64,000 bases of DNA, taken from Desulfobacterium sp. Lineage in GTDB: Bacteria > Desulfobacterota > Desulfobacteria > Desulfobacterales > Desulfobacteraceae. Both the position numbers and the translations under genes were made by a program. Below are positions 7,215 through 23,060 of this stretch, piece after piece (position 1 is the stretch's first letter; each line of letters starts with the position of its first letter). The notes beneath the pieces were generated by a model. It was not told where the DNA came from and ran no database searches. It saw only the letters and a list, made by a program, of their open reading frames with translations. Location of the stretch: contig JAQYWC010000053.1 of assembly GCA_030145245.1 (NCBI GenBank), positions 1 to 64,000 on the forward strand, written 5' to 3'.

Positions 7215-8784
7215 TGTCTTTCCTCTTGTCCTTGGCGTAGAGCCTTCTCAGTTTGGGTTTCTCTATCTTGCCGGTGGGGTTTCTCGGCACCTCCCCGAAG
7301 ATGATTTTCCTGAGGCGCTTGTACCGGGGAAGCGCTTCTCCAAACTCGACAATCTCCTTTTTGGTGAGTTCGCACCCGGCCTTGGCCGCAAAGATACCCG
7401 CCGGGATCTCGCCCAGGCGTTCGTCCGGAATGCCGATCACGGCCACATCCTGTATCTTCTTGTGCTGCATGTAGAAGTGCTCGATCTCCACCGGGAAGAT
7501 GTTCTCGCCACCGCAGATGATCACGTCCTTTTTCCGGTCAACCAGCCAGATGAAACCTGACATGTCGTAACGGGCGATGTCGCCGGTGTGGAGCCAGCCG
7601 TCTATGATGGTCTTGGCCGTGGCGTCCGGGTTTTTGTAGTACTCCTTCATCATCCCGGGACCCCTGACGATGAGCTCTCCGCTCTCGCAGCCGGGCAGCT
7701 CGTCACCGCTTGCATCCACGATCTTGCACTCCCAGTCAAAGCCGGGAACCCCGATGGCACCCACATGGTCCGGGTTTTCCACACCCAGGTGGACGCAGCC
7801 AGGCCCCGTGGTCTCGGTGAGGCCGTAGTTGGTGTCGTAGTCATGGCCTGGGAAATACTGTTTCCATTCGTTGATCAGGCTTGGGGGTACGGGCTGGGCA
7901 CCGATGTGCATCAAGCGCCACTGGTCGAGCAGGTATTTCGAGGTATCCAGGCTGCCGTTCTCGATGGCGATGAGGATGTCATGGGCCCAGGGCACCAGGA
8001 GCCAGACAATGGTTGCCAGCTCCTCGGACACGGCTTCCAATATCCATTTCGGCTTGACTCCCTTGAGGATGATGCACTTGCCTCCCACCATAAAACTGCC
8101 CAGCCAGTGCATTTTTGCGCCGGTGTGATAGAGGGGGGGGATGCACAGAAAGGTGTCTTCGTGGGTCTGGCTGTGGTGGCGGTTTTCCACATAGCAGGCG
8201 TGCTCGAGGTTCCTGTGGGTCAGGAGTACGGCCTTTGGAGTGCCTGTGGTGCCTGAAGTGAAGTAGAGGGCAGCGTCTTCTTCGATGGCAAGTTTCACAT
8301 CCGGAGGGGTTTCCCCGCTTTCGGACCGGATGAACTCCCTGTAGGGGATAGCCCAGTCAGGACAGTTTTCCGGGTTGCCCGTGAAGATCCAGAGGCTCAC
8401 AAAGGAGTCGAGAAATACCTTGCCTGTTTCGATCCTGTCGATGAACTCATCGCCGAAGATAAACACCTTTGCCTCGGCAACCTCGGTGCAGAGCCGGATC
8501 TTGTCAAATTCAAACCTGAAGTTCAGGGGGACGGCCCAGGCACCGGTGCTCAGGATGCCGAAATAGACGGGGAGCCACTCAAGGCAGTTGGTCATCAGCT
8601 GGATCACCCGGTCCCCTTTTGTGATGCCCCGGCGTGCAAGGGCATTGGCCAGGCGGTTGGACTCCTGGTAAAATTCCATCCAGGTGATCTCCTGCCGAAG
8701 ATCCTCGGCCGGAGCCCGTTCGATCAGGGCGATCTCGTTCCCGTATCTGCGGCTGTTTCTTGCTAAAATCTCTGTTATTATCAT
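7195..8784 (-). CDS. AMP-dependent acyl-CoA synthetase (fatty acid-CoA ligase)
   Basis: 529-aa class I adenylate-forming enzyme that activates a carboxylic acid to its acyl-CoA via an acyl-adenylate. The phosphate-binding motif is AALYFTSGTTGTPKAVLLTH (about residues 170-190). NYGLTETTGPG, the adenylate-binding DGWLHTGDIARYD and the hinge region DRKKDVIICGGENIFPVEIE follow. The C-terminal PTGKIEKPKLR supplies the catalytic Lys. The nearest families are medium/long-chain fatty acid-CoA ligases; the exact substrate cannot be read from the sequence. It lies immediately upstream of lolA and overlaps it, an unusual functional pairing. Confidence 0.88.
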   Translation of the reverse strand: MIITEILARNSRRYGNEIALIERAPAEDLRQEITWMEFYQESNRLANALARRGITKGDRVIQLMTNCLEWLPVYFGILSTGAWAVPLNFRFEFDKIRLCTEVAEAKVFIFGDEFIDRIETGKVFLDSFVSLWIFTGNPENCPDWAIPYREFIRSESGETPPDVKLAIEEDAALYFTSGTTGTPKAVLLTHRNLEHACYVENRHHSQTHEDTFLCIPPLYHTGAKMHWLGSFMVGGKCIILKGVKPKWILEAVSEELATIVWLLVPWAHDILIAIENGSLDTSKYLLDQWRLMHIGAQPVPPSLINEWKQYFPGHDYDTNYGLTETTGPGCVHLGVENPDHVGAIGVPGFDWECKIVDASGDELPGCESGELIVRGPGMMKEYYKNPDATAKTIIDGWLHTGDIARYDMSGFIWLVDRKKDVIICGGENIFPVEIEHFYMQHKKIQDVAVIGIPDERLGEIPAGIFAAKAGCELTKKEIVEFGEALPRYKRLRKIIFGEVPRNPTGKIEKPKLRRLYAKDKRKDIDKLLK

Positions 8785-8862
8785 CCTCTACATCCAGCCC
8801 CCAAGCGGTTGTGCGCTTATTTTTTTAGGTTAACGGTCGGCCATGGGCCCTGCCCGATATAA

Positions 8863-8905
8863 AAAATCCCACTGGGCAGTATAGTGCACAGTGGGATTTT
8901 TTTTC
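8863..8905 (-). terminator. Rho-independent terminator of grpE-dnaK
   Basis: A 12-bp stem (arms 8863-8874 and 8889-8900) has A/T runs on both sides, so it can act in both directions. On the minus strand it lies 22 bp after the dnaK stop codon. Confidence 0.85.
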
Positions 8906-8921
8906 AAGGCTGTTTTATTAT

Positions 8922-10838
8922 TTATTTCTTGGTCTCATTGACCTCTTCAAAGTCGGCATCGACCACATCGTCATCCTGGCCGGCTGCACCTGCCTGGCCC
9001 TGGGGATCAGCTCCGGGCTCTCCGCCCTCCTGGGCTGCCTGCTGGTACATGGCCTCTGCAAGTTTGTGTGACGCCTGGGTCAGCTCCTCGCTCTTCTGCT
9101 TGATGGCTTCTGCATCATCGCCGTCTTTGACCTGTTTCAGGGCCTCGCAAGCGGCTTCGATGGCTTTCTTGGTGTCATCGTCAACCTTGTCTCCATGCTC
9201 TTTCAGGGTCTTTTCCGTCTGGTCGATGAGGGATTCGGCAGAGTTCTTTGCATCCACAAGCTCTCGTTTCTTCTTGTCCTCGTCGGCATGCATCTCTGCA
9301 TCCTTGACCATCCGGTCGATCTCATCCTCGGAAAGGCCGCTTGCCGCTGTGATGCGGATGGACTGTTCCTTGGCTGTGGCCTTGTCCTTGGCTTTAACAT
9401 GGACGATACCGTTGGCATCGATGTCAAAGGTGACCTCGATCTGGGGCACGCCCCTGGGTGCCGCTGGGATGTCGGCGAGCTCGAACTGGCCGAGGGTCTT
9501 GTTGCCGGCTGCCATCTCCCGCTCTCCCTGGAGAACGTGGATGGATACGGCGGGCTGGCTGTCAGCAGCCGTTGAGAAGACCTGGCTCTTCTTGGTGGGG
9601 ATGGTGGTGTTCTTTTCGATCAGCCGTGTCATGACTCCGCCCAGGGTTTCGATGCCCAGGGAGAGGGGGGTAACGTCAAGGAGGAGAACATCGTTGACAT
9701 CGCCCTGGAGAACGCCTGCCTGGATGGCGGCACCCATGGCAACCACTTCGTCCGGGTTCACGCCCTTGTGGGGCTTTTTGCCGAAGATCTTTTCCACGCG
9801 CTCCTGCACGGCCGGCATACGTGTCATGCCGCCAACAAGAACCACCTCGTTGATCTCGCCTGCAGAGAGTCCTGCATCTTTCATGGCGGTTTTACAGGGC
9901 TTCACCAGGTTGTCCAGGAGATCGGCCACAAGGGATTCCAGCTTTGCCCGGGTGAGCTTGACGTCAAGATGCTTGGGGCCGCTTGCGTCTGCCGTGATGA
10001 ACGGAAGATTGATGTCGGTCTCAACAGCTGTGGAGAGCTCCATCTTCGCTTTTTCAGCCGCCTCTTTCAGGCGCTGGAGGGCCATTTTGTCGTCCCGGAT
10101 ATTGATCCCCTGGTCTTTCTTGAACTCATCGGCAATGTAGTCGATGATTCTCAGGTCAAAGTCCTCGCCGCCCAGGTGGGTGTCGCCGTTGGTTGATTTT
10201 ACCTCGAACACACCGTCGCCGATCTCAAGAACCGAGACGTCAAAGGTTCCTCCACCCAGATCGAACACGGCGATCTTCTCTTCGCCTTTTTTGTCCAGAC
10301 CATAGGCAAGGGAGGCAGCCGTGGGCTCGTTGATGATTCGTTTTACCTCAAGGCCTGCAATCTTTCCTGCATCCTTGGTGGCCTGTCTCTGGCTGTCGTT
10401 AAAGTAGGCCGGTACAGTGATGACAGCTTCCTTGACCTCTTCGCCAAGATAATCTTCCGCAGTCTTCTTGATATTGGCCAGGATAAAGGATGAGATCTCT
10501 GCCGGGCTGTGCTGTTTGCCCCGGAGGTTGATCCGGGTGTCGCCGTTGGATGCCGCCTCGATTTTGTAGGGGAGAACCTTAATGTCGGCCTGGATCTCGG
10601 CGGAATTGAATTTGCGTCCAACAAGTCTTTTTACGCCAAATACGGTATTCTCAGGGTTTGTGATCGCCTGTCGTTTCGCGGTCTGGCCCACGAGACGGTC
10701 TTGGCCTTCAGTGAGGGCCACAACAGAGGGGGTTGTTCTGTTTCCCTCGGAATTGGTGATGACCTTTGCCTCTCCAGCCTCCATTACCGCAACGCATGAG
10801 TTGGTTGTTCCAAGGTCTATTCCTATTATCTTAGCCAT
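8922..10838 (-). CDS. dnaK: Chaperone protein DnaK (Hsp70)
   Basis: 638-aa Hsp70 chaperone. The nucleotide-binding domain begins [18 protein letters not shown] and has the phosphate-2 motif [24 protein letters not shown]. The linker [15 protein letters not shown] leads to the substrate-binding domain, and the C-terminal tail is Gly/Gln-rich and ends in [12 protein letters not shown]. Length and motifs are fully typical. It follows grpE by 23 bp on the minus strand. No dnaJ gene is adjacent, and no CIRCE-like inverted repeat was seen upstream of the operon. Confidence 0.97.
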
Positions 10839-13389: not shown

Positions 13390-13437
<48 letters not shown>

Positions 13438-13858
13438 ATCACCACGGTCTTTGGTTGTTGTTTCAACGGGCTGATATCGTTTGAAAATAATCGGTTATCA
13501 ATTTGGACGGTTTCGGTTGGTGGCAGGTTTTTATGGGATTCTCACACCGTTTCATCTACCAATCGTCTACCGTCAAGCATATCCGTATTTGTTTTTTAAA
13601 TGTTTCATATAGATATATGTATGTAGGGTGTAGGTTGGAGTGTTGGTCACCCGAGGAGGGGGGGGGCAGAAGAGAAGAGAGAGGTCCATCGTTGTGTGTA
13701 ACAATTTTGTAAGATTGTTTTTCAACAAATGTTTTTACAGCCTCTTAAATATTCTTCAAACATAGTGTCTTTTGTGTTATTTGCCTATTGTAAAGGAGGT
13801 TATATGCCACAAATATACAACACCCCATTAACTTCTTCATTGACATGATGTAAGTTGA
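13438..13858. other. Left end of island, no gene seen
   Basis: AT-rich sequence with a purine-rich block near 13650-13685 (GAGGAGGGGGGGGGC). No open frame with a plausible start and ribosome binding site was found. It may hold integrase arm-binding sites, but none could be defined. Confidence 0.4.
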
Positions 13859-14017
13859 TCATTTGGTGTGCTCAATGATCAGTTTTTCCATTAAATCCTT
13901 CATGTGAATCCCTTCCATAGCAGCTTTGACCTTCAATTTGCGGTGTACATCTTCAGAAATTTTAACTGTAATGTGTTTTAAAACCTTTTTATTCTTGTTA
14001 TCTTTTTCAGTACCCAT
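13859..14017 (-). CDS. Small ribbon-helix-helix DNA-binding protein
   Basis: 52-aa protein read directly from the minus strand: a Lys-rich start MGTEKDNKNKKVLKH, a beta strand ITVKIS, then EDVHRKLKVKAAMEGIHMKDLMEKLIIEHTK. That is the pattern of a ribbon-helix-helix fold (strand, helix, turn G.H/S, helix) seen in CopG/Arc/ParG-type regulators and antitoxins. A strong AAGGAG ribosome binding site precedes ATG 14017. No toxin-like partner gene is adjacent. It may instead regulate or partition the island. The family call rests on the pattern only. Confidence 0.65.
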   Translation of the reverse strand: MGTEKDNKNKKVLKHITVKISEDVHRKLKVKAAMEGIHMKDLMEKLIIEHTK

Positions 14018-14175
14018 GTTCCATCTCCTTTTAAGGTTATAATGTTGTTTAAACCTTTATTCTTAAATGGATTATCACCTGCTTTTACAATAACAGCACG
14101 GCCTTTTCTGCAATTACATAATTGTTTTTTATGTAAAATCTCGATCTCATTCCCTTCCGCTATCGCCTTCGTCAA

Positions 14176-14663
14176 CTTTTGTCTTTTTTACAGTGAAAGA
14201 TTCTTCAAAACAGGTTATACTCTATTATAATTTTTATATGTTTGTAAAATTATCAAGGCATACTGGGTGCAGGAAGGCGTGTTGGGTTTCTAATGACAGT
14301 AAGGGAGTTAGAGGAGAATGGCGTTAACTGTTTTTGTCAAGATCTATTTCATATAAAGAAATTTGGTCTTGATCATACCTTTGGCCTATTTGTGGCGAGT
14401 TTTTTAAGAAGGTAATGATAATTACTGTCGTAATTACAGACCATGAGGGGTGTGACAGAATGAGCGCCCCGTATAAGTGCCCCCACCTTATGATCAATCC
14501 CGAAAATTTCAATCTAACTTGGGTATAGTTTCCCGCTGGTTGAAATGAAAAAATGTTTTTTTAAAGTTAGATACCCCGTAGCTTGCTGGCGGATAGTTTA
14601 TTTAAAATAAATATCAAATGCTATGGCCCAAGAATTTTATCGTTTTTAAGTAGGTTTTTTTTA
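14176..14663. other. AT-rich intergenic region upstream of the methyltransferase
   Basis: No convincing gene. The region separates the minus-strand RHH gene from the plus-strand methyltransferase gene and should hold their promoters. No clear controller-protein box (tandem inverted repeats) of the kind found upstream of some restriction-modification operons was recognised. Confidence 0.4.
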
Positions 14664-17006
14664 ATGAAGAATATTGATAATGAGTGCAAGTTGTTCCTTA
14701 ACCAACGAATATCCGAATTCGAGGGTATCCTAAATGTTACCACGAAGTTTAGTGATAATTTTTTACTTGAAGTCAAGGAATTGTGCAAATACCTTATCTT
14801 ACAACAGTTGAGGCCAATAGAGGATAGAACAAACTTACTATTCGCGAGTGTTAATTGGAAATTTAGAACTAACTCAAATAGCATGAAGAAATTTTATGGT
14901 TATGCAGTAAAGCTTGGAGTTAGTTTTAATTACCACCAAAAAAAGAATATTCAATTTTCCTTTGACTGCAACTCACTGTCAACATTCAAGAAGACATTAT
15001 CCGAATTCAACTTGAAAGAAGATATTAATAAAAAATTGATTGGTTATTTTACACCGATATCTCATGACAAAACCATTGAAATAATAAACACTGAAATAAA
15101 TGCCCCAACCAGATTGAGAAAACCCAAGGGGAATAGGGATATCTCACTTGAAATATACGAATCTGTTTTTGCTGCATTCTTGTATAGCTCGGTACCAGAA
15201 AAAGTGATGCATAGATTTTTTGATCCACTATTTAATGAAAAAAGCTATTGTTCGAGTTACTGGGATGAATTACACATGAGGTCCCCATCCCTGTTTAGTC
15301 GTGATGCTGCACTCTATATTCTAACGATTAATAATGAGATCGTTAGTAAATGTAAAACATATATACAATTCAGAAATAACTTGAACAGATGTATTTCTGA
15401 ATACTATAAAAAAATAAACAATTATGGTTATCTTTCTATACTTATAGAACCTGTAAAGATCGAAAACCGTTGGATTCAATGGGAATTGGCGGCTGATATA
15501 ATTTTATATGCAGAAAAACACATTGAGTCCAGGCTAAAAAAGGCGTACTTCAGATCAAAGGATATTGCAGAAAAAACAAGTGATTATATTAAAAATGTAG
15601 AATTGAACGACACTTCTTTTCATATCGCAAATGAAGGTTTTACCTATAAAGACTGCTTTGTGACCTCTCCATCTGCAGGGGATTCATCTATTAACGAAAC
15701 GATACCACTATTAATATTTCAAAAAAATCATAGGGATGAATCGGAAATATTTTGCCCTAAATGTCGTAGTAATAAAGTTAGAGGCAACTCCTATCCGAGT
15801 TTTGGGGTAAAAAGTTGGGAATGTAAAAATTTATTATGTCCAGATAAAAGTAAATACAATAGAGGTAAGAGATATTCATTTAAAGGATTAGTTTCCCAAC
15901 AAGCGATAGATGATGAACTCAACCTAATTCCCAAGAGATTAGTCAAAACGTGGGTGAGAGATGTTCAGCAAAATAAAAGCACAAAAGAAATATTTGAAAT
16001 GTTGTTTCGATTTTATTCACTTTTTGGCGACAATGTAACTTTAATTAATTGTCCAGATTTACCAGAAGAAAATTATGGAAGAAAAATTATTAACAGTTCG
16101 TTTCCATTCAATGATTTAGAACGACAAGAACCGCTATTGAATAAGTCTTTCTTTAATAGGTACCTTGTCTCTGATGACCGTAAAAACAGCATATTGCCTA
16201 TTAATTTAGGGGATGATGATTTTCAAGTCTTTGAAGGTGATTCTTTTGAAGTCCTCCAATGCTTCGAAGATGATTATTTCGATGGGGTTGTGACTTCTCC
16301 GCCTTATTATAATGCGAGAGAATACTCTCAATGGGACAATATTTATTGCTATCTTTACGATATGTATAATGTTAATAGAGAAGTGTACCGTTGTCTTAAA
16401 CCTGGAGCTCTCTATTTATACAACATTTTTGACTATTTCGATAACGAGAGAAGTGTTACTTTTTCAGCTATGGGACAAAATCGAATGATTTTAAGTGCTT
16501 ATACGGTGAATATGTTCAAAACAATCGGTTTTAGGTGTTTAGGTAACACAGCTTGGGATAAAGGAGATATTGAAGGTAAGCGTGGATTTAATGCGGGAAA
16601 CTTTTCACCGTATTATCAAGCTCCTTTCAATTGTTGGGAACACGTTTTGATCTTTGTCAAACCATGTAGTTCAACCAAGGGACAGAATCCCGATTTGCCA
16701 GGAATATTAAAGACAAAACCTGTATTTAAAATGGTTAACGGAAAAAATACTTATGGCCATTCTGCGCCTTATCCGCCTGCTATACCTGAATTATTGATCA
16801 AGCTTCTCCCTAAGGGTTCAATAGTGTTAGATCCTTTTGGAGGCAGTTTAACAACTGGTAGAGTGGCTGAAAAAAATAATATCTCGTCAGTTTGTATTGA
16901 AAAAAGTATCGATTATTGCAACATAGGTTTATCGTTAAGGGAAAAGGAAAAAAATAAAGCCCATTTTTCTAAAAGGCAACAAGACTTACCACTGATATTT
17001 AAATGA
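14664..17006 (+). CDS. Beta-class DNA methyltransferase with long N-terminal region
   Basis: 780-aa protein. The C-terminal third is an amino-methyltransferase with motif order IV then I (beta class): TSPPYYNARE at about residue 543 and DPFGGSLTTG at about residue 722. SPPY with a Thr/Ser before it is typical of N4-cytosine enzymes, though N6-adenine is not excluded. The first ~540 residues match nothing I can name; a four-Cys zinc ribbon (CPKC...CKNLLC) lies at about 363-390. Such an extension may hold target recognition or another activity. ATG 14664 is chosen over an upstream TTG (14583); the ribosome binding site is weak. It is AT-rich relative to the host, and an HNH endonuclease gene converges on it. 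Probable modification subunit of a restriction-modification system. Confidence 0.82.
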   Translation: MKNIDNECKLFLNQRISEFEGILNVTTKFSDNFLLEVKELCKYLILQQLRPIEDRTNLLFASVNWKFRTNSNSMKKFYGYAVKLGVSFNYHQKKNIQFSFDCNSLSTFKKTLSEFNLKEDINKKLIGYFTPISHDKTIEIINTEINAPTRLRKPKGNRDISLEIYESVFAAFLYSSVPEKVMHRFFDPLFNEKSYCSSYWDELHMRSPSLFSRDAALYILTINNEIVSKCKTYIQFRNNLNRCISEYYKKINNYGYLSILIEPVKIENRWIQWELAADIILYAEKHIESRLKKAYFRSKDIAEKTSDYIKNVELNDTSFHIANEGFTYKDCFVTSPSAGDSSINETIPLLIFQKNHRDESEIFCPKCRSNKVRGNSYPSFGVKSWECKNLLCPDKSKYNRGKRYSFKGLVSQQAIDDELNLIPKRLVKTWVRDVQQNKSTKEIFEMLFRFYSLFGDNVTLINCPDLPEENYGRKIINSSFPFNDLERQEPLLNKSFFNRYLVSDDRKNSILPINLGDDDFQVFEGDSFEVLQCFEDDYFDGVVTSPPYYNAREYSQWDNIYCYLYDMYNVNREVYRCLKPGALYLYNIFDYFDNERSVTFSAMGQNRMILSAYTVNMFKTIGFRCLGNTAWDKGDIEGKRGFNAGNFSPYYQAPFNCWEHVLIFVKPCSSTKGQNPDLPGILKTKPVFKMVNGKNTYGHSAPYPPAIPELLIKLLPKGSIVLDPFGGSLTTGRVAEKNNISSVCIEKSIDYCNIGLSLREKEKNKAHFSKRQQDLPLIFK

Positions 17007-17065
17007 TGTTTTGGCATACATAAGGTGTATATTGGTATGTCAGATTGTTTGTGGTAGGCTTATTT

Positions 17066-17112
17066 GTTACTCCTTGATCGTTAGGTTTGGGGCAGCTTGA
17101 TCATGGAGTAAC
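17066..17112. repeat. 14-bp inverted repeat between methyltransferase and endonuclease genes
   Basis: Arms 17066-17079 (GTTACTCCTTGATC) and 17099-17112 are complementary except for one position, with a 19-nt loop. It lies between two convergent genes, so a bidirectional terminator is likely, although no T run follows. A protein-binding site is the alternative. Confidence 0.5.
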
Positions 17113-17324
17113 AATATTGGGTCGTATATATGGCAAAGTCTCTGCACTCTGGCTATGCTCGAGGTCAAGGAATTTCATATTCGACTAAAAAGTTACCTGA
17201 TTACCACGTATTCACAGCCATGCTTACGGGAAGAGCATAAATCGGCCCTTTCAGCATACAGTATGGCCAAGAAAAAAAAACAATTTCAAAACGGCATGAG
17301 GTTCTGGCTATGAATTACAAAGCC

Positions 17325-18473
17325 TTATGCCTCGGTTGGCCGCTGTATCCGTTCGAACAAGACTCCCGTTGGCAGACCGTCTTTAACTTTGGTTGAGAAA
17401 GAGTGGTAATCAGAAAAAGTTATACGTAGTTTTTGAACATCCCCTTGAAAATCCATCATTTTTTTTCGTTTAACCTTTTCTGGAATAGTTACATCTTTAC
17501 CATTGATAGTAACATTGACTATTCCATTTTCTGAAATGATTTTGTGAGAATGCAAAGTTAATCCTCCAGGTGCCATCCAATTGATTGTAGCTGGTTCGAC
17601 TGTGTCCTTTGTCTTTTTAGGGGACGAATATACTATTGACAAAGAATAAGGGGGTTGATCAATGTTATTAAAATAATGGGAAAATGGAAAAGAAAATACG
17701 GGAGTTTTAAAAAAAGTTACCCGCGAAGCACCATTGCCGTTCTCTTCGCTTCCTACAAAACACAGAAATGACTTAGGTGAAATGTTTTCATAAAGAGTTG
17801 TAAAATCGCCTACAATCTCATCCTCAGTCCAAGCTCTAGTTATAACACCATTTGGCCATAGCAATAAATTGCATTTTTTATCGTTTGAATCAAGTACATA
17901 TTCAAAATCTGCATGAGCTTGAAGCCACATAGCCATGGCCCATCCTTCTTGCATGCGAACATCGGCCATTGTCATTCCATAAAGCCTACACATCCGATTA
18001 AAATCCTGAAGGATACGAGGTTTGAAATTAAATAATATCCACATTAAAGCTGATTCCGCAGTTAAATGTGTGCCACCTCCGAACTTATGAGATGGTCGTT
18101 TAATAACATTACAGCGTCGACACCGTAACACCATGTTTTCGATAAAATCAGCATCTATTGGATCTTTATAACTTTCTTTTGGAGTGCTGTGATCAGCTTG
18201 TAATTCAAGCCTAGATCCACAATCAGCACATTTTCCATCCTGTTCATAAAACCACTTCATAACGATACTCATAGTGTTGCCCTTACCGTACCGTTTTTTA
18301 AATCCCTCTGAAGAGGCCAGGCTAGTTCCAACCTGTGATGGGTTCATGTTCCCAAGTACAAGTGTTGCAATATCCTTCCAAGATAAAAGTTTGTAGTTAA
18401 CTAAGGTTTTAAGCAGCGCATTCCAATTCTCTTCATTCCAATTCTCATCATCGTATTCGAAACCAGTCCCCAT
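17325..18473 (-). CDS. HNH endonuclease, probable restriction enzyme
   Basis: 382-aa protein with a central HNH nuclease domain at about residues 95-150: CADC, then ADHSTP (catalytic His), then ENMVLRCRRCNVIKR, the Cys pairs forming the structural zinc site. Next comes GGGTHLTAESALMWILF...RMCRLYGMTM..VRMQEGWAMAMWL, and the C-terminal ~180 residues are of unknown fold. It is encoded convergently with the DNA methyltransferase, 318 bp apart, and both are AT-rich. I infer a type II-like restriction endonuclease. The recognition sequence cannot be predicted. An anti-phage HNH nuclease without restriction specificity is the alternative. Confidence 0.78.
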   Translation of the reverse strand: MGTGFEYDDENWNEENWNALLKTLVNYKLLSWKDIATLVLGNMNPSQVGTSLASSEGFKKRYGKGNTMSIVMKWFYEQDGKCADCGSRLELQADHSTPKESYKDPIDADFIENMVLRCRRCNVIKRPSHKFGGGTHLTAESALMWILFNFKPRILQDFNRMCRLYGMTMADVRMQEGWAMAMWLQAHADFEYVLDSNDKKCNLLLWPNGVITRAWTEDEIVGDFTTLYENISPKSFLCFVGSEENGNGASRVTFFKTPVFSFPFSHYFNNIDQPPYSLSIVYSSPKKTKDTVEPATINWMAPGGLTLHSHKIISENGIVNVTINGKDVTIPEKVKRKKMMDFQGDVQKLRITFSDYHSFSTKVKDGLPTGVLFERIQRPTEA

Positions 18474-18625
18474 TATTTACACCTTTCTTAGAGTAGCTAC
18501 ATTAACAAGTAGGGCTGCATAACATTTATGAAGGGATTTGAGAATGTAAATTACAGATTGATCAAAATAACGAACGTTTTTTTCTTTAAAAAATGAACAC
18601 ATAACGGCGTGACCTTTTTGTTCAA

Positions 18626-18673
18626 CTACATGATACTAAAAGCATAAATACGAGTTTAATGATCATCATGTAG
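18626..18673. promoter_or_regulatory. Inverted repeat upstream of serine recombinase gene
   Basis: A 9-bp perfect inverted repeat, CTACATGAT (18626-18634) and ATCATGTAG (18665-18673), has arms about 39 bp apart. It lies in the divergent promoter region between the endonuclease and recombinase genes and ends 14 bp before the recombinase ATG. It could be an operator or a recombinase-binding (res-like) site. Confidence 0.45.
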
Positions 18674-18687
18674 AAGGAAGGGCCGTA

Positions 18688-19296
18688 ATGAAAAAAACAA
18701 TCGCATATTTAAGGGTCAGCACGGATGGGCAGGATTTAAAAAATCAAAAGCTTGAAATTCTCGAATATGCCCATGTGAATAATTTCACTGTTGATACGTG
18801 GGTTGAAATCAAGGTGTCAAGCCGTAAGGGGACCAAGGAGAGGTTGATAGATCAGTTGTTGTCTGATTTAAATGAGGAGGACTGTCTGATCGTTGCAGAA
18901 CTTTCCCGACTTGGCCGTTCAGTTGGGCAAATAATAGGGATTGTAGATGAATTAATAAAAAAGAGGGTGAAGGTCATTATCATCAAGCAGAATATGATCA
19001 TCAACGGTAAGAACGATATCGCAACAAAGACCATGATAACCATGTTTTCCCTTTTTGCTGAGATAGAGAGGGACCTGATCTCCGAACGTACTAAGAGCGG
19101 TCTCGCTCGTGCAAGGGCTGAAGGGAAGTTGATAGGAAGGCCCAAGGGTAATGGTAAATCCAAGCTGGATGGTAAAGAAAGGGAAATTCAAGATATGCTT
19201 TCCAAGGAGGTTAGCCGGGCATCTATCGCCAAATTAATGGGGGTCACTTGGCCTACCCTCAACCATTTTATCAAGACTCGTAGTTTGGCAGCATGA
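18688..19296 (+). CDS. Serine recombinase (resolvase/invertase family)
   Basis: 202-aa small serine recombinase. The catalytic domain starts YLRVSTDGQDLKNQ with nucleophile Ser11 and nearby Arg9, and continues with AELSRLGRS. The dimer helix region ...MFSLFAEIERDLISERTKSGLARARAEGK and GRPKG lead to a C-terminal helix-turn-helix (SRASIAKLMGVTWPTLNHFIKTR). Length fits Tn3 resolvase/Hin-type enzymes. The ribosome binding site AAGGAAGGG is close to ATG 18688. The target is unknown; the 18626-18673 inverted repeat or the repeats at 19421-20090 downstream are candidates. It is divergent from the HNH endonuclease gene. Confidence 0.9.
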   Translation: MKKTIAYLRVSTDGQDLKNQKLEILEYAHVNNFTVDTWVEIKVSSRKGTKERLIDQLLSDLNEEDCLIVAELSRLGRSVGQIIGIVDELIKKRVKVIIIKQNMIINGKNDIATKTMITMFSLFAEIERDLISERTKSGLARARAEGKLIGRPKGNGKSKLDGKEREIQDMLSKEVSRASIAKLMGVTWPTLNHFIKTRSLAA

Positions 19297-19580
19297 TATA
19301 TTATATAACGGCAATTTTTTGCATAGTCTTTTGCAGATCCTTCGATATAAATACTTAAATATACTGAAATAGTAAGAAAAAATACAGATATAATGGTATC
19401 AACATAATACCATCGGCAGAAAGCCTGTCAGGAGATCCTACCCCCCCCTCCTTCCCTGGACGGCTGAAAACCAATGTATTCCCTTTGATATATAGGCTGA
19501 TGGGGTAGGGTTGCCATATAACTGATCAAGCCCCTGCCACCGACATGTCAAGCGGGTGATGTTGCAGGACACTTTTTTTG

Positions 19581-19604
19581 TGGTCGGGGGTGGGGTTCGA
19601 ACCT
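19581..19604 (-). pseudogene. Degenerate tRNA 3'-end remnant (attachment-site scar)
   Basis: TGGTCGGGGG followed by GGGGTTCGAACCT matches, on the minus strand, a tRNA T-arm, acceptor arm and CCA end. The match to the tRNA-Pro end at 22984 is clear in TGGTCGGGG and TTCGAACCT, with substitutions between. No anticodon arm follows, so it is not a tRNA gene. Confidence 0.6.
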
Positions 19605-19901
19605 AAAAACATGATGAAGCATGGTATGTTTCACCAGAAGGAGGTTCCTTCTATTGGTTCCACTCCCTACGACCACCTATATGAAGGCGATCATAATAGC
19701 GGCGGGATTACATCTATTACAGTTTTGGATTCGTTGCTGTCAGGAGGCTCCTATTGGTCTCCCAGACATAAGGTCTGTCAGGAGATACTACCCCCCCCTT
19801 ACTTCCCCGGACGACTGAAAACTAATGTAGTACCGTTGAGAGATAGGCTGATGGGGTAGGGTTGCCATATAGCTGATCAAGCCCCAGCACTCCCCTTTTT
19901 T

Positions 19902-19923
19902 TGGTCGGGGCGGGTTTGAACTG
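19902..19923 (-). pseudogene. Second degenerate tRNA 3'-end remnant
   Basis: TGGTCGGGGCGGGTTTGAAC keeps the acceptor/CCA part of tRNA-Pro (TGGTCGGGGCG) with a decayed T-loop. It lies 321 bp from the first remnant at the equivalent place in the repeat unit. Confidence 0.55.
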
Positions 19924-20139
19924 AAACCATTATGAAGCATGGTATGTTTCATCAGAAGGAGGTTCCTTCTATTGTTTTCACTTTTCGCAACCCTCTACAC
20001 GAAAGAGACCAGAACTGCGGCGGGATCACATCCATTATGGGTATGGATCTCCTATTGACCTCCCAGACAGAAAGCCTGTGAAGCCAATAGGGAACACCGG
20101 AAACCGACTGTTAATCTGTAAAACCTGAAAATCTGCCGT

Positions 20140-21291
20140 TCAAAAAATCCTTGAAAAGAATATTTGGGGGTTAATCTGGATTATATTGCCTGTCAAGAAG
20201 GACTTCCCTTGTAGCTTCCTGACAAAATCCTGATTAAATGGGTGGGGTTTAAGTAATTGATATTTATTTATATTGTTTTCCTTTAGATACTTCATTGTTT
20301 CCTTAATATTTTTCTTTAGAATATCAATATGAATCCCCATTGTTTCTTTAAGTATGTTACTGTCCGTTTTTCCACAGTGTCTTCGCATATTTGTAAACTT
20401 CATATAATCTATTTGTTTGTATTCTAAGGGTTTAATAACATTGATTATATCAATCTTATACAAATCGTCTATTGTATCAATTCCAAGGTTGTTGGGCTTT
20501 CCGTTGGCTTTCTTCAATTTGTTTCGTTTGTAGGTTAGTTCCTGTCGGGCTACTGTTTTAGGTACACGGCCTCCGTCTTCCAAACTGAATAAAAGTAAAT
20601 CATGTATTTCAAGGTCTTTAATGTAGATCTTCCCTCCTTTTGTCTTTGTAAAACGTATGTTATTGGAATATTTGGTCGTGTTATATTGTGGAACGGGCCT
20701 TGATCTTGATGAATACTTCAAATGTGATATTTTCGTTAACTGTTTATATATTTCATCATGTTTCCCTTTTAAATAGAAATCAAAAGTGAATTCTATCTCT
20801 TGTATATGATAGTACGGGAAGAGATTTAATACCTGTTTGATCTGTTCCAATATGTATATATCTGGGTATGTTATCTTGATCGAGTCTGGATAACCATTAG
20901 TCCCTGTTATATGTTCAACTATATAAGATCTTGCAATTGTTTTTAATCTAAATGTATTACGAAATCTACCGTACTTAATTTTCTGTGAAGAGACTTCAAC
21001 ACCATAATGCATTGATTTAAAATGGTTTTGTAACATGTCGAAAATTATTTGAGATGTAAATGGAGTGCTGGTTGAGTTCCCGGAATGAACTGAATGGGAC
21101 GGATTTACATCAGAACTGTTAAAATTATTGTATATATAACCCTTTTTATTAAAAGAATTAACTGTATCAATATTAATCAAAACATAATTGCAAGACAAAT
21201 ATATTTTGATTAAATTATTTTGGGCCATATAATTATTGTAGCTGGGTGGAGAATTGTTGGCGTGATCTGTTTGTCGTTTCTTCATGGTCAC
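20140..21291 (-). CDS. Unrecognised 383-aa island protein, possibly replication-initiator-like
   Basis: 383-aa, very AT-rich coding sequence with Asn/Lys/Ile-rich composition. I do not recognise a defined family. Features seen are an Asn/Ser-rich N-terminus (residues 1-85), a central part with alternating strands (IQEIEFTFDFYLKG, GGKIYIKDLEIHDLLLF) and an acid/basic segment VARQELTYKRNKLKK. Motifs like D/EFTFDFY and R.EL...R..L occur in some phage or plasmid replication proteins, so a Rep-like role is possible but weakly supported. It lies between the tRNA-like repeat region and the HTH-integrase pair and is transcribed towards the repeats. The start is ATG 21291; GTCACC upstream offers only a weak ribosome binding site. 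Confidence 0.6.
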   Translation of the reverse strand: MTMKKRQTDHANNSPPSYNNYMAQNNLIKIYLSCNYVLINIDTVNSFNKKGYIYNNFNSSDVNPSHSVHSGNSTSTPFTSQIIFDMLQNHFKSMHYGVEVSSQKIKYGRFRNTFRLKTIARSYIVEHITGTNGYPDSIKITYPDIYILEQIKQVLNLFPYYHIQEIEFTFDFYLKGKHDEIYKQLTKISHLKYSSRSRPVPQYNTTKYSNNIRFTKTKGGKIYIKDLEIHDLLLFSLEDGGRVPKTVARQELTYKRNKLKKANGKPNNLGIDTIDDLYKIDIINVIKPLEYKQIDYMKFTNMRRHCGKTDSNILKETMGIHIDILKKNIKETMKYLKENNINKYQLLKPHPFNQDFVRKLQGKSFLTGNIIQINPQIFFSRIF

Positions 21292-21630
21292 CTTCTTTAA
21301 TCCTTTAAATAATGGGTTGTTTTTTAAAAACCTCTTGTCACGTGTCGTATGACAAAGGGGGGTGTCAGGGATTTTTATATATTTACACCTCCTTTCAAAA
21401 AAAAATCCATCTTCCGTTGCTTCTTATATATCTGCATACATCCTAGTGCCGTCTATATACACTCCTCATACATGTTGTTTTGTGGTCTAAGGGCTTGATA
21501 ATATAAAGTGTTTGACAGCTTTGAGATGCTCATCTAAGGTGTTTTTCAAGGTCGAATATGTCAAGCTTTATATTGAAAAAACATAAGATTTTTTTTGGGT
21601 GAATATGTGGAGTGAAAAAGGCGTGATGTT
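21292..21630. other. Divergent regulatory region of the island
   Basis: A non-coding stretch lies between the minus-strand 383-aa gene and the plus-strand HTH-integrase genes. It has an inverted repeat TTGTCA (21335-21340) and TGACAA (21350-21355) next to a GGGGGG run, and further down short AT-rich stretches. A regulator or integrase arm-site role is plausible but untested. Confidence 0.45.
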
Positions 21631-21993
21631 ATGATGAAAATGGAGTTAAATAAGGGGGATATCCTAACTCCTGCGGATGTTCTTCGGCTTATGCCACCGA
21701 ACATAAAAAGCAGTTGGATATACCAAAATTGGGAGAAACTGGGCGGAGTAAAGATTGGAGGTAAGAAATTTATTTTGAAAAAGGTGTTTTATGCCAATTT
21801 ATTGCAAGAAGGGCTGGTATTATGTAAACGTCATGGTCAAAGGGAAGAGATGGTTTCCAAGCGATGTCGGAATGACGGTAAAGCGATGGAAAACCAAACG
21901 AGAAGCGAAATCCGCAGAGGTGGAACTGAGAAAGCGGATAACGATGCTGTCTGTCGAAGCCGTGACAGACACGGTCTTGCTGACTATATGTAA
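21631..21993 (+). CDS. Helix-turn-helix protein (AlpA/excisionase-like)
   Basis: 120-aa open frame. Residues 10-55 (GDILTPADVLRLMPPNIKSSWIYQNWEKLGGVKIGGKKFILKKVFYANLL) match the MerR/AlpA-type winged HTH used by excisionases and integrase regulators: tP.dVl.l.....sWiY..w..lgGvkiGgk. The last ~66 residues overlap the integrase gene in another frame (203 nt) and look less protein-like, so the functional part may be only the first ~60 residues. The position directly upstream of int fits a directionality or expression factor. Confidence 0.68.
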   Translation: MMKMELNKGDILTPADVLRLMPPNIKSSWIYQNWEKLGGVKIGGKKFILKKVFYANLLQEGLVLCKRHGQREEMVSKRCRNDGKAMENQTRSEIRRGGTEKADNDAVCRSRDRHGLADYM

Positions 21994-22888
21994 CAAATAT
22001 CTGGATGATCAAGAGAAGCGGCATATCGGACATGACACTTACAAGACCAAGCAGAGGTTTTGTAAAGATATGCTGGGGTCGTTTGGAAATATTCCCATGA
22101 CAAGCCTGAAAGCCCATGATGTCCAGGCGTTTCTGAATGGTAAGTTGGAGAAGGTGAGTGCCAACACCTACAATGTTTGCAGAAAGGAAGGTTTGCGGTT
22201 GTTCCGTTGGGCTGTTAATCAGCAACTTGTCCCGGCTGATACTGTTAATCCTTTTGAAAGGGTTGAAAAAATGCCATATCGGCCTCAAAAAACCGGGCCA
22301 GCACCCTTGCAAGATGTATTGAAGGTCTTTGAGGTAGCTAGTCCAGAACAACGGGATATTCTTGAAGGATATGTGTTGACAGGGGCACGGAAAAATGAGC
22401 TACTATCGTTAACCCATGATGACCTTGATTTTTCAAATAGAGTCTATACATTGAGAACAAGAAAGACGAAGGGTGGGGTGGAAAAGGTTACCGCTTATCC
22501 CATGTCAAAAGCTCTCCGCAAGCTGTTTAAACGAAAGATGGACAACAGGCACCGGGATCTTCCGTATGTCTTTTGGCATAAGTATTGGGATCGGGCCGAA
22601 AAGGATTGGACGGTTGACCGTTATAAAAGCCTGAACAGATTTACCGAAAGGTTGTGTAAAAAGGCTGGAGTTCCAATATTTGGCCTTCATCAGCTTAGGC
22701 ACCTGGCCGCTACGATATTAAAAGAAGAAGCTGGTATGGGAATTTCGAAATTGCAAAAGTTCCTTCGGCATGAAGACCAGAAAACAACAGAGATTTATGC
22801 GGGGTTTCTTGATACGGATACGGGTGAACAGGTAGACTTTTTAAGTGAGTTTTGGGATGGGAAACTATCAACATTGGAACTGAAATAG
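21791..22888 (+). CDS. int: Tyrosine integrase of the island
   Basis: 365-aa phage-type tyrosine recombinase. A short N-terminal arm-binding strand region (MPIYCKKGWYYVNVMVKGKRW) and a SAM-like core-binding domain precede the catalytic domain. Active-site residues are visible: Arg200 (GARKNELLSL), His300 and Arg303 (HQLRH), His327 (LRHED) and nucleophile Tyr336 (TEIYAGF). The start ATG 21791 has AAGGTG 5 nt upstream, inside the HTH gene. The stop codon lies about 95 bp from tRNA-Pro. It probably recombines the 48-bp att sequence in the tRNA. Confidence 0.93.
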   Translation: MPIYCKKGWYYVNVMVKGKRWFPSDVGMTVKRWKTKREAKSAEVELRKRITMLSVEAVTDTVLLTICNKYLDDQEKRHIGHDTYKTKQRFCKDMLGSFGNIPMTSLKAHDVQAFLNGKLEKVSANTYNVCRKEGLRLFRWAVNQQLVPADTVNPFERVEKMPYRPQKTGPAPLQDVLKVFEVASPEQRDILEGYVLTGARKNELLSLTHDDLDFSNRVYTLRTRKTKGGVEKVTAYPMSKALRKLFKRKMDNRHRDLPYVFWHKYWDRAEKDWTVDRYKSLNRFTERLCKKAGVPIFGLHQLRHLAATILKEEAGMGISKLQKFLRHEDQKTTEIYAGFLDTDTGEQVDFLSEFWDGKLSTLELK

Positions 22889-22930
22889 AAAAATGTCTAC
22901 CAAAACGTCTACCAAGGGCTGTTTCATAAC

Positions 22931-22963
22931 AAAAGGGGTTACCATTATGAACGGTAACCCCTT
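22931..22963 (-). terminator. Island-borne terminator for tRNA-Pro
   Basis: An 11-bp perfect stem (arms 22933-22943 and 22953-22963) is followed by TTTTGTTAT on the minus strand, 20 bp downstream of the tRNA-Pro CCA end. It lies inside the island and replaces the original terminator now at 13343-13377. It may also stop int transcription coming the other way. Confidence 0.75.
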
Positions 22964-22983
22964 GTCTTATACCGGTTTTTGTA

Positions 22984-23060
<77 letters not shown>

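What the first reader, a model, noticed from the sequence alone, without database searches (positions are those of the whole stretch)
14664..18473. Probable restriction-modification pair: long SPPY methyltransferase and HNH endonuclease
A beta-class methyltransferase has a ~540-aa unassigned N-terminal region with a zinc ribbon before motif IV, far longer than a normal type II methyltransferase. It converges with a 382-aa HNH nuclease. The N-terminal part might be a target-recognition or second nuclease domain, so the architecture could be a new arrangement.
Basis: partly seen in the sequence, partly recalled or inferred. Interest (0 to 1): 0.75.

Follow-up and report, generated by a model that had tools for sequence, protein, structure and literature searches.

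The report
Split-role methyltransferase paired with HNH nuclease

Summary
In detail: a 780-aa SPPY methyltransferase (MTase; 14664-17006, +) converges with a 382-aa HNH protein (17325-18473, -). Both sit on a 9.6-kb low-GC island in tRNA-Pro (48-bp att repeats, tyrosine integrase); a congener has the empty site.

The pairing is real. Of 19 full-length MTase relatives from several bacterial phyla and one archaeon, 18 have the HNH gene beside them, always head-to-head, 17 with a C-type regulator; no other neighbour recurs in more than 2 loci. The window is a convergent version without the C gene; a viral contig carries a convergent sister pair.

No sign of a second nuclease. Residues about 232-459 match, co-linearly, a zinc-ribbon beta-class MTase of phages: the zinc ribbon is those enzymes' target-recognition insert (E 5e-35), and both flanks match MTase regions above shuffled controls. 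This half lacks both catalytic motifs in 23 of 23 aligned sequences; the C-terminal half keeps both, but has 30-35 aa where the phage enzymes have 97-101.

Best reading: a Type II restriction-modification system whose MTase is a one-chain pseudo-dimer, dead recognition half plus active reader-less half: EcoP15I's division of labour hard-wired. Activity and target site are untested.

The parts
13390..23031 (.). integrative island, about 9.6 kb, inserted at the 3' end of tRNA-Pro(TGG)
   Evidence: 48-bp perfect direct repeat at both ends; GC mostly 32-45% against mostly 50-59% around it; empty site with the same flanking genes in a congener
13390..13437 (.). left att repeat (partial tRNA-Pro 3' end)
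   Evidence: 48 of 48 identical to 22984-23031
22984..23031 (.). right att repeat, inside the intact tRNA-Pro gene 22984-23060 (-)
14664..17006 (+). long beta-class DNA methyltransferase, 780 aa
   Evidence: AlphaFold2 model pLDDT 85, pTM 0.86
14664..15302 (+). MTase residues 1-213: helical N-terminal part, role unknown
   Evidence: weakly conserved (mean 21% identity); comparison with MTase profile at shuffle level; helical in the model
15303..16118 (+). MTase residues 214-485: degenerate MTase half (no motif IV, no motif I); borders approximate, homology covers about 232-459
   Evidence: flanks match MTase profiles in register; catalytic motifs absent in 23 of 23 rows
15699..15983 (+). MTase residues 346-440: zinc-ribbon target-recognition module
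   Evidence: profile match to the insert of short viral MTases, E 5.3e-35, 86 columns; invariant cysteines
16209..16961 (+). MTase residues 516-766: active-looking beta-class catalytic half, recognition insert absent
   Evidence: Z 24.4, rmsd 2.6, 208 aligned to M.BceJIV; SPPY and DP[FY]xGSxT[TS] in 23 of 23; 30-35 aa where short relatives have 97-101
17325..18473 (-). HNH nuclease, 382 aa, presumed restriction endonuclease
18096..18230 (-). HNH core, residues 82-126
   Evidence: PF01844; invariant residues
17409..17891 (-). HNH protein residues 195-355: extra beta-rich domain, faintly like GyrA C-terminal domain
   Evidence: Z 7.6, rmsd 3.8, 124 aligned; within the middling range; of the 20 paired HNH proteins compared, present in the window, L018, L023, L031 and L038
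18688..19296 (+). serine recombinase (invertase/resolvase type) where relatives have the C gene; link to the pair not shown
   Evidence: PF00239; Mpi-type model below its cut-off; phrog_125
21791..22888 (+). tyrosine integrase of the island
   Evidence: PF00589, phrog_1

Best explanation
A Type II restriction-modification system on a tRNA-Pro island. The HNH protein cuts unmodified foreign DNA; the MTase marks the same site in the host. The MTase is a one-chain pseudo-dimer. Its first half (about 214-485) descends from a zinc-ribbon beta-class MTase, has lost the motifs for SAM binding and catalysis, and keeps the target-recognition domain (TRD). Its second half (516-766) keeps catalysis and lacks a TRD of its own. 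The first half reads the site and the second methylates it, the division of labour seen between the two Mod subunits of EcoP15I. Shown here: conserved pairing, motif loss and retention, placement of the TRD, co-linear homology of both flanks. Inferred: DNA reading by the zinc-ribbon half, methylation, cleavage, a shared site, phage defence.
For: Pairing: HNH relative in 18 of 19 full-length MTase loci; of 196 neighbouring ORFs only MTase (19 loci), HNH (18) and the C gene (14 by BLAST) recur in more than 2 loci; the C profile, built from those 14, adds 3 more, 17 of 18. Distances of the two proteins correlate over 20 pairs, r 0.74, 0 of 5000 permutations as high. Pseudo-dimer: of 99 viral ORFs with both core motifs 9 carry the zinc-ribbon module; it lies between motifs IV and I in 8 (7 distinct) and before motif IV only in the long one; module match E 5.3e-35. 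Flank 214-346 scores 31.9 against shuffles 12.0+-2.8 (max 21.7), flank 425-500 scores 35.0 against 9.4+-1.9 (max 16.5), 0 of 100 each as high; residues 1-213 are at shuffle level, 19 of 100 as high. Profiles of viral MTase ORFs without the zinc ribbon hit the same positions: flank 425-500 26.8, 0 of 100; flank 214-346 20.7, 1 of 100. Motifs IV and I absent in the first half 23 of 23, present in the second 23 of 23. Recognition slot 30-35 aa in 23 long enzymes against 97-101 aa in the short ones, same end points. Predicted secondary structure runs broadly in parallel.
Against: Neither flank matches the enzyme's own catalytic half (probability under 1%). With only the three BstXI-type rows, the second flank gives nothing (E 0.34) and the first 28%. 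The flank matches are short (42 and 20 columns), the first reaches only 59% probability (5% with the second profile), and the E-values are for single comparisons. One MTase relative (L019) has no HNH partner, only one weak HNH hit elsewhere in its genome (E 1.2e-4), and one viral HNH (L039) no MTase in 64.8 kb. Mirror-tree correlation can also come from shared descent. No activity or recognition site is known.
Confidence: 0.7

Rival explanations
1. R-M pair as above, but the zinc-ribbon TRD was simply moved in front of the MTase domain as an independent module; the flanking N-terminal regions are unrelated scaffold, not a dead second MTase.
For: The module match alone is overwhelming, the flank matches are short, and the flanks do not match the enzyme's own catalytic half.
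Against: Both flanks match MTase profiles above shuffles, in the right order and register on either side of the module, with two different profile sets; the predicted strand-helix order runs broadly in parallel.
Confidence: 0.2
2. The N-terminal region is a second nuclease or a type IIG-like fusion.
Against: Residues 1-345 hold only one acidic residue invariant in the 20 full-length sequences (D330) and no conserved PD-(D/E)xK, GIY-YIG or HNH signature; loose patterns hit 4 of 23 rows at unrelated places in residues 1-515; no family hit lies within residues 1-318 among the rows shown.
Confidence: 0.03
3. The MTase is solitary and epigenetic, and the HNH gene is an unrelated neighbour, such as a homing-type nuclease.
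For: L019 has the MTase without a close HNH relative; L039 is an HNH relative amid phage genes without MTase in its contig; the window lacks the C gene.
Against: 18 of 19 linkage across phyla with a C-type regulator between, and no other neighbour recurring in more than 2 loci; convergent sister pair in a virus.
Confidence: 0.05
4. The HNH protein is modification-dependent (Type IV-like) and attacks DNA carrying foreign marks, with the MTase regulating or antagonising it.
For: Methylation-dependent HNH enzymes such as VcaM4I and TagI exist (PMC8989522, passages); 6yex (VcaM4I) appears weakly, Z 3.0.
Against: The M / C-R layout is that of classical Type II systems (recalled), and the nuclease sits beside its MTase in 18 of 19 loci.
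Confidence: 0.05

Closest known systems
EcoP15I Mod2 (Type III MTase; PMC4490356, passages read)
   Same: beta-class MTase in which one unit's TRD reads the DNA while the other unit's active site methylates; TRD inserted between motifs IV-VIII and X, I-III
   Different: EcoP15I uses two copies of one gene product, each with TRD and active site, plus a Res helicase; here the two roles would be fixed in two unequal halves of one chain, with an HNH partner
METTL3-METTL14 (compared in a passage of PMC4490356; other papers seen only in listings)
   Same: recalled: an active and a degenerate MTase unit work together, the degenerate one helping substrate binding
   Different: two eukaryotic proteins acting mainly on RNA; not fused
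Fused double MTases, e.g. M12.MhoVII (PMC12898733, abstract and outline read)
   Same: two MTase units in one Type II R-M polypeptide
   Different: both MhoVII units are active, on complementary motifs GATG and CATC; here one half lacks the catalytic motifs
PADLOC MTase_II model PDLC03236
   Same: matches residues 319-754, E 8.7e-93, so the zinc ribbon plus catalytic half is a catalogued Type II MTase type
   Different: residues 1-318 are not in the match; the model's label says nothing of a dead half
BstXI restriction system (PMC4335341, whole text read)
   Same: BstXI-family REases (PF09552) sit beside related MTases in L009 and L037
   Different: BstXI itself uses a Type I-like M plus S; the window nuclease is not PF09552
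C-protein-controlled Type II systems (e.g. PvuII; recalled)
   Same: in 17 of 18 head-to-head relatives an HTH_3 C-type gene precedes the nuclease gene, divergent from the MTase
   Different: the window and its viral sister are convergent; the window has no C gene

Membership tests
Type II restriction-modification system | separate MTase and nuclease genes, linked across genomes | tested here: met
   18 of 19 full-length loci, plus window and viral sister
Type II restriction-modification system | intact catalytic motifs in both enzymes | tested here: met
   SPPY and DPFGGSLTT in the MTase; C82, C85, H95, N113, C118, C121 in the HNH protein
Type II restriction-modification system | nuclease cuts the site that the MTase protects | not testable with these tools
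   needs protein or methylome
C-protein-controlled R-M system | C gene upstream of the nuclease gene (family level) | tested here: met
   profile hit in 17 of 18 head-to-head loci, 14 of them the profile's own members; L034 has an ArsR-type HTH gene there instead
C-protein-controlled R-M system | C gene upstream of the nuclease gene (in the window) | tested here: not met
   no profile hit up to E 10 in the island, frames of 30 codons or more
beta-class amino MTase | motif order IV, then X and I, with the beta-class fold | tested here: met
beta-class amino MTase | TRD in the slot between motifs VIII and X | tested here: not met
   slot 30-35 aa against 97-101 aa; the zinc-ribbon TRD lies before motif IV
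EcoP15I-type (Type III) MTase | Res helicase-nuclease partner | tested here: not met
   no helicase among the six larger island proteins scanned; the partner is HNH
fused double MTase with two active units | catalytic motifs in both units | tested here: not met
   first half lacks motifs IV and I in 23 of 23 rows
BstXI family REase | RE_BstXI domain PF09552 | tested here: not met
   window protein gives only HNH PF01844 up to E 1; no BLAST relation to the L009 enzyme

The most novel reading that the evidence does not exclude
A family of DNA MTases, spread over several phyla, in which the two jobs of a beta-class dimer have been split for good between two halves of one chain: a catalytically dead half that kept the DNA-reading zinc-ribbon domain and an active half without one. 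It would be a natural experiment showing that beta-class MTases read DNA with one unit and methylate with the other, as proposed from EcoP15I. It is paired with an HNH nuclease type that matches no REase_II model in PADLOC.
Probability: 0.65. Interest if true: 0.75.

Novelty: new variant of a known kind. Interest (0 to 1): 0.62.

Why it matters
The EcoP15I paper suggested that the whole beta-class may work as recognition unit plus methylating unit (PMC4490356, passages). In dimers of one gene product, both units carry every mutation, so the idea is hard to test by genetics. Here the two roles would lie in different halves of one gene and could be mutated, swapped or deleted separately. The module also offers a way to change specificity by exchanging one zinc-ribbon half. 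The nuclease type could supply a new cutting specificity.

Tried and rejected
Second nuclease in residues 1-540: rejected. BstXI-type REase: rejected for the window.

Viral scan with the window MTase alone found no relative; an alignment was needed. The genome scan used two short patterns of the catalytic half (70 stretches matched, 22 confirmed), so it is not a census. PDB sequence search with the HNH profile gave nothing up to E 0.1, with the protein alone three weak rows, best E 0.16. Foldseek with the HNH model gave no match under E 0.001; its first rows were also ParC/GyrA C-terminal domains, at E 0.06 and above, and the HNH rows are from the second-look aligner (best 4h9d, Z 5.6). The HNH model is modest (pLDDT 70). 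No PDB match to MTase residues 1-489 was among the rows shown; a separate model of that part could not be made (two jobs used). The viral-structure search gave MTase-type matches and settled nothing for that part.

Profile test one search was invalid: the template file was empty and the numbers printed are stale; it was repeated properly. The slot lengths used different end points for long and short enzymes; one search repeats them with the same ones (30-35 against 97-101) and those are the figures given. The flanks do not match the enzyme's own catalytic half.

Rows dropped: L035-L037 (partial MTases, match 214-754) are left out of the 18 of 19 count; none of the three has an HNH relative at the locus or elsewhere in its genome. 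L044 and L045 give identical proteins and count once in '7 distinct'. In one search, ORFs carrying the zinc ribbon and rows covering under 60% of the profile were dropped and identical rows merged; those rows were found with profiles of the first seven enzymes, so the two tests are not fully independent. The C profile was built from 14 of the 17 proteins it finds; it also gives a weak hit to the HTH gene of L038 (E 4.4e-4). Neighbour ORFs come from my own simple ORF caller, 80 aa or more within 5 kb.

Genome surveys: HNH profile in 1 of 389 genomes of the same order, the window's own; in 0 of 391 genomes of the class of G300, without a positive control. MTase protein: 7 of 198 at E 1e-15, but only the window's own beyond the catalytic half. 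PDLC03236: 1 of 297 at E 1e-30, plus Thermotoga maritima among 14 controls. HNH protein: none in plasmids; in phages one 25.8% match to an annotated recombinase, none with L028's protein. Literature: searches listed no title or abstract describing this pair or a dead-plus-active beta-class DNA MTase; they cover open-licence PMC papers only and, for most, the listing alone was seen. Passages of PMC4081073, PMC8989522 and PMC11473606 were read; the last has a 408-bp HNH gene beside a cytosine-5 MTase, another layout. REBASE was not available. Recognition-site prediction from site avoidance was not tried.
Full report
OBSERVATION. The window holds an 807-aa frame (14583-17006, +), best started at ATG 14664 (780 aa), and a 382-aa frame on the other strand (17325-18473). 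Pfam sees the N6_N4_Mtase domain at 540-754 (E 3.6e-20) and HNH at 82-125, marginally. The stop codons face each other across 318 bp.

SURROUNDINGS. The pair lies on an island from 13390 to 23031. A 48-bp perfect repeat marks both ends; the right copy is the 3' part of tRNA-Pro(TGG) 22984-23060. GC inside is mostly 32-45%, outside mostly 50-59%. It carries a tyrosine integrase (21791-22888), a serine recombinase (18688-19296), a 383-aa protein without a significant hit (20140-21291) and an Arc-like 52-aa protein (13859-14017). In a congener (G693) the same left-flank genes are followed by a single tRNA-Pro and the next gene, with no island; the other congener's contig ends at the tRNA and says nothing. 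The HNH gene is absent from both congeners and was found in 1 of 389 genomes of the order, the window's own. A recent acquisition is the likely reading.

THE PAIR IS CONSERVED. A scan of genome contigs with a two-row alignment gave 22 MTase relatives, 19 of them full length at 37-42% identity, from Bacteroidota, Proteobacteria, cyanobacteria, Bacillota, other groups and a Woesearchaeote. Eighteen of the 19 have an HNH relative (46-57% identity over 156-196 aa of the N-terminal part, over more than 300 aa in three) directly beside the MTase, and in all 18 the two genes are head to head. In 17 of these 18 a small HTH_3 gene of the C-protein kind lies just upstream of the nuclease gene (14 of them built the profile, 3 were found by it); L034 has an ArsR-type HTH gene there. 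Among 196 ORFs around the 19 MTases no other family occurs in more than two loci. The exception is L019, whose genome has only one weak HNH hit, on another contig (E 1.2e-4). Distances of MTase and HNH correlate (20 pairs, r 0.74, 0 of 5000 permutations as high). The reverse test is thin: of two viral HNH relatives, one (L038) has the MTase beside it and one (L039) has none in 64.8 kb of a possibly incomplete contig.

THE WINDOW IS A VARIANT. The window pair is tail to tail and has no C gene (no profile hit up to E 10). A viral contig (L038/L040) holds its nearest relative (HNH 56%, MTase 51% identity), also tail to tail, with the genes overlapping by 17 bp and an HTH gene divergent from the nuclease gene that matches the C profile only weakly (E 4.4e-4). 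The two form a supported clade in both trees (1.00 and 0.96). Since 18 of 18 others are head to head, I take the convergent order as derived. Their HNH proteins, with L018, L023 and L031, have an extra C-terminal beta-rich domain; its best structural rows are GyrA C-terminal domains, Z 7.6, rmsd 3.8, 124 aligned, within the range where a match may mean only a common arrangement.

WHAT THE LONG N-TERMINUS IS. AlphaFold2 with 23 sequences gave a good model (pLDDT 85, pTM 0.86). Residues 516-762 match beta-class MTases (M.BceJIV Z 24.4, rmsd 2.6, 208 aligned; rotifer N4C-MTase Z 24.0). In short viral MTases the same zinc-ribbon module (CPxC...WECKNxxC...RGKR) sits between motif IV and motif I, the normal place of the TRD in this class: 99 viral ORFs had both core motifs, 9 the module, 8 of these (7 distinct) between the motifs; the ninth is the long sister enzyme, where it precedes motif IV. 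Between fixed end points the 23 long enzymes have 30-35 aa in that slot, the short ones 97-101 aa. The module of the long enzymes aligns over all 86 columns of that insert, E 5.3e-35.

The flanks of the module tell more. Residues 214-346 align with the MTase stretch just after motif IV (42 columns, score 31.9; 100 column shuffles 12.0+-2.8, maximum 21.7). Residues 425-500 align with the stretch leading into motif I (20 columns, score 35.0; shuffles 9.4+-1.9, maximum 16.5). Residues 1-213 do no better than shuffles (19 of 100 as high). A repeat with profiles of viral MTase ORFs that lack the zinc ribbon (80 rows before, 117 after the slot, found with profiles of the first seven) hit the same positions: 20.7 (1 of 100 shuffles as high) and 26.8 (0 of 100). 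The predicted order of main elements is broadly parallel: strand 217-222, helix 233-250, strand 256-261, helix 272-285, strands 326-335 and 347-354, module, helix 440-451, strand 457-461, against 539-544, 560-577, 578-588, 610-621, 624-632, 658-665, empty slot, 706-712, 720-723 (the pairing is my reading and leaves out some shorter or unmatched elements). Motif IV and motif I are missing from the first half in 23 of 23 rows and present in the second in 23 of 23.

Against this: the flanks do not match the enzyme's own catalytic half; the flank matches are short and the first one is modest (59%, and 5% with the second profile); and the three BstXI-type rows alone show only the first flank, weakly. 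The first half seems related to the viral zinc-ribbon type rather than a recent copy of the second half, so fusion of two different MTases is as likely as duplication.

MECHANISM. In EcoP15I one Mod subunit reads the site with its TRD while the other flips and methylates the base; the authors say a single Mod cannot do both and that it is conceivable that the whole subfamily works this way (PMC4490356, passages). The long enzyme looks like that pair frozen into one chain. The HNH protein would then be the nuclease of a Type II system, cutting unmarked DNA. Shown: pairing, motif loss and retention, module placement, flank homology. Inferred: DNA reading, methylation, cutting, common site, defence. 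SPPY favours m4C (recalled); structural neighbours include both m4C and m6A enzymes, so this stays open.

KNOWN RELATIVES. PADLOC model PDLC03236 already covers the zinc ribbon and catalytic half. BstXI-family nucleases accompany related MTases in a staphylococcal plasmid and in Jeotgalicoccus, but BstXI itself uses a Type I-like MTase (PMC4335341, whole text). The HNH protein has no REase_II hit in PADLOC up to E 0.1 and no PDB relative by profile up to E 0.1. Hence: new variant of a known kind.

Noticed in passing
19417-20079: Two diverged tandem units of roughly 350 bp (parts 78-88% identical) inside the island, each with a fragment resembling the tRNA/att edge (TGGTCGGGG...); perhaps remnants of earlier integrations.
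   Followed up: no
20140-21291 (-): 383-aa protein without a significant family hit; by eye replication-initiator-like (inference only).
   Followed up: partly
18688-19296 (+): Serine recombinase of the Mpi invertase kind in the position where relatives have the C gene; I recognised no convincing inverted-repeat recombination sites in the repeat list.
   Followed up: partly
L039:7965-8537: HNH relative (about 190 aa) alone among phage genes, without MTase in 64.8 kb.
   Followed up: partly
L019:7785-10283: Full-length MTase without HNH partner in a Thiodictyon genome, a possible orphan.
   Followed up: partly
L037:7500-13332 and L036:6411-9653: Long MTases of a second branch next to a BstXI-family REase (L037) or next to a 391-aa protein with only a sub-threshold BstXI hit (L036).
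   Followed up: partly
L041 and L042, about 8001-9635: Viral MTase match (37%) on a contig where the simple ORF listing shows no long frame over the match (L041); perhaps a recoded stop codon.
   Followed up: no
L009: 2.3-kb record declared a complete circular plasmid of S. saprophyticus that holds a partial MTase frame running off its end and a BstXI-family REase; possibly an assembly fragment.
   Followed up: no
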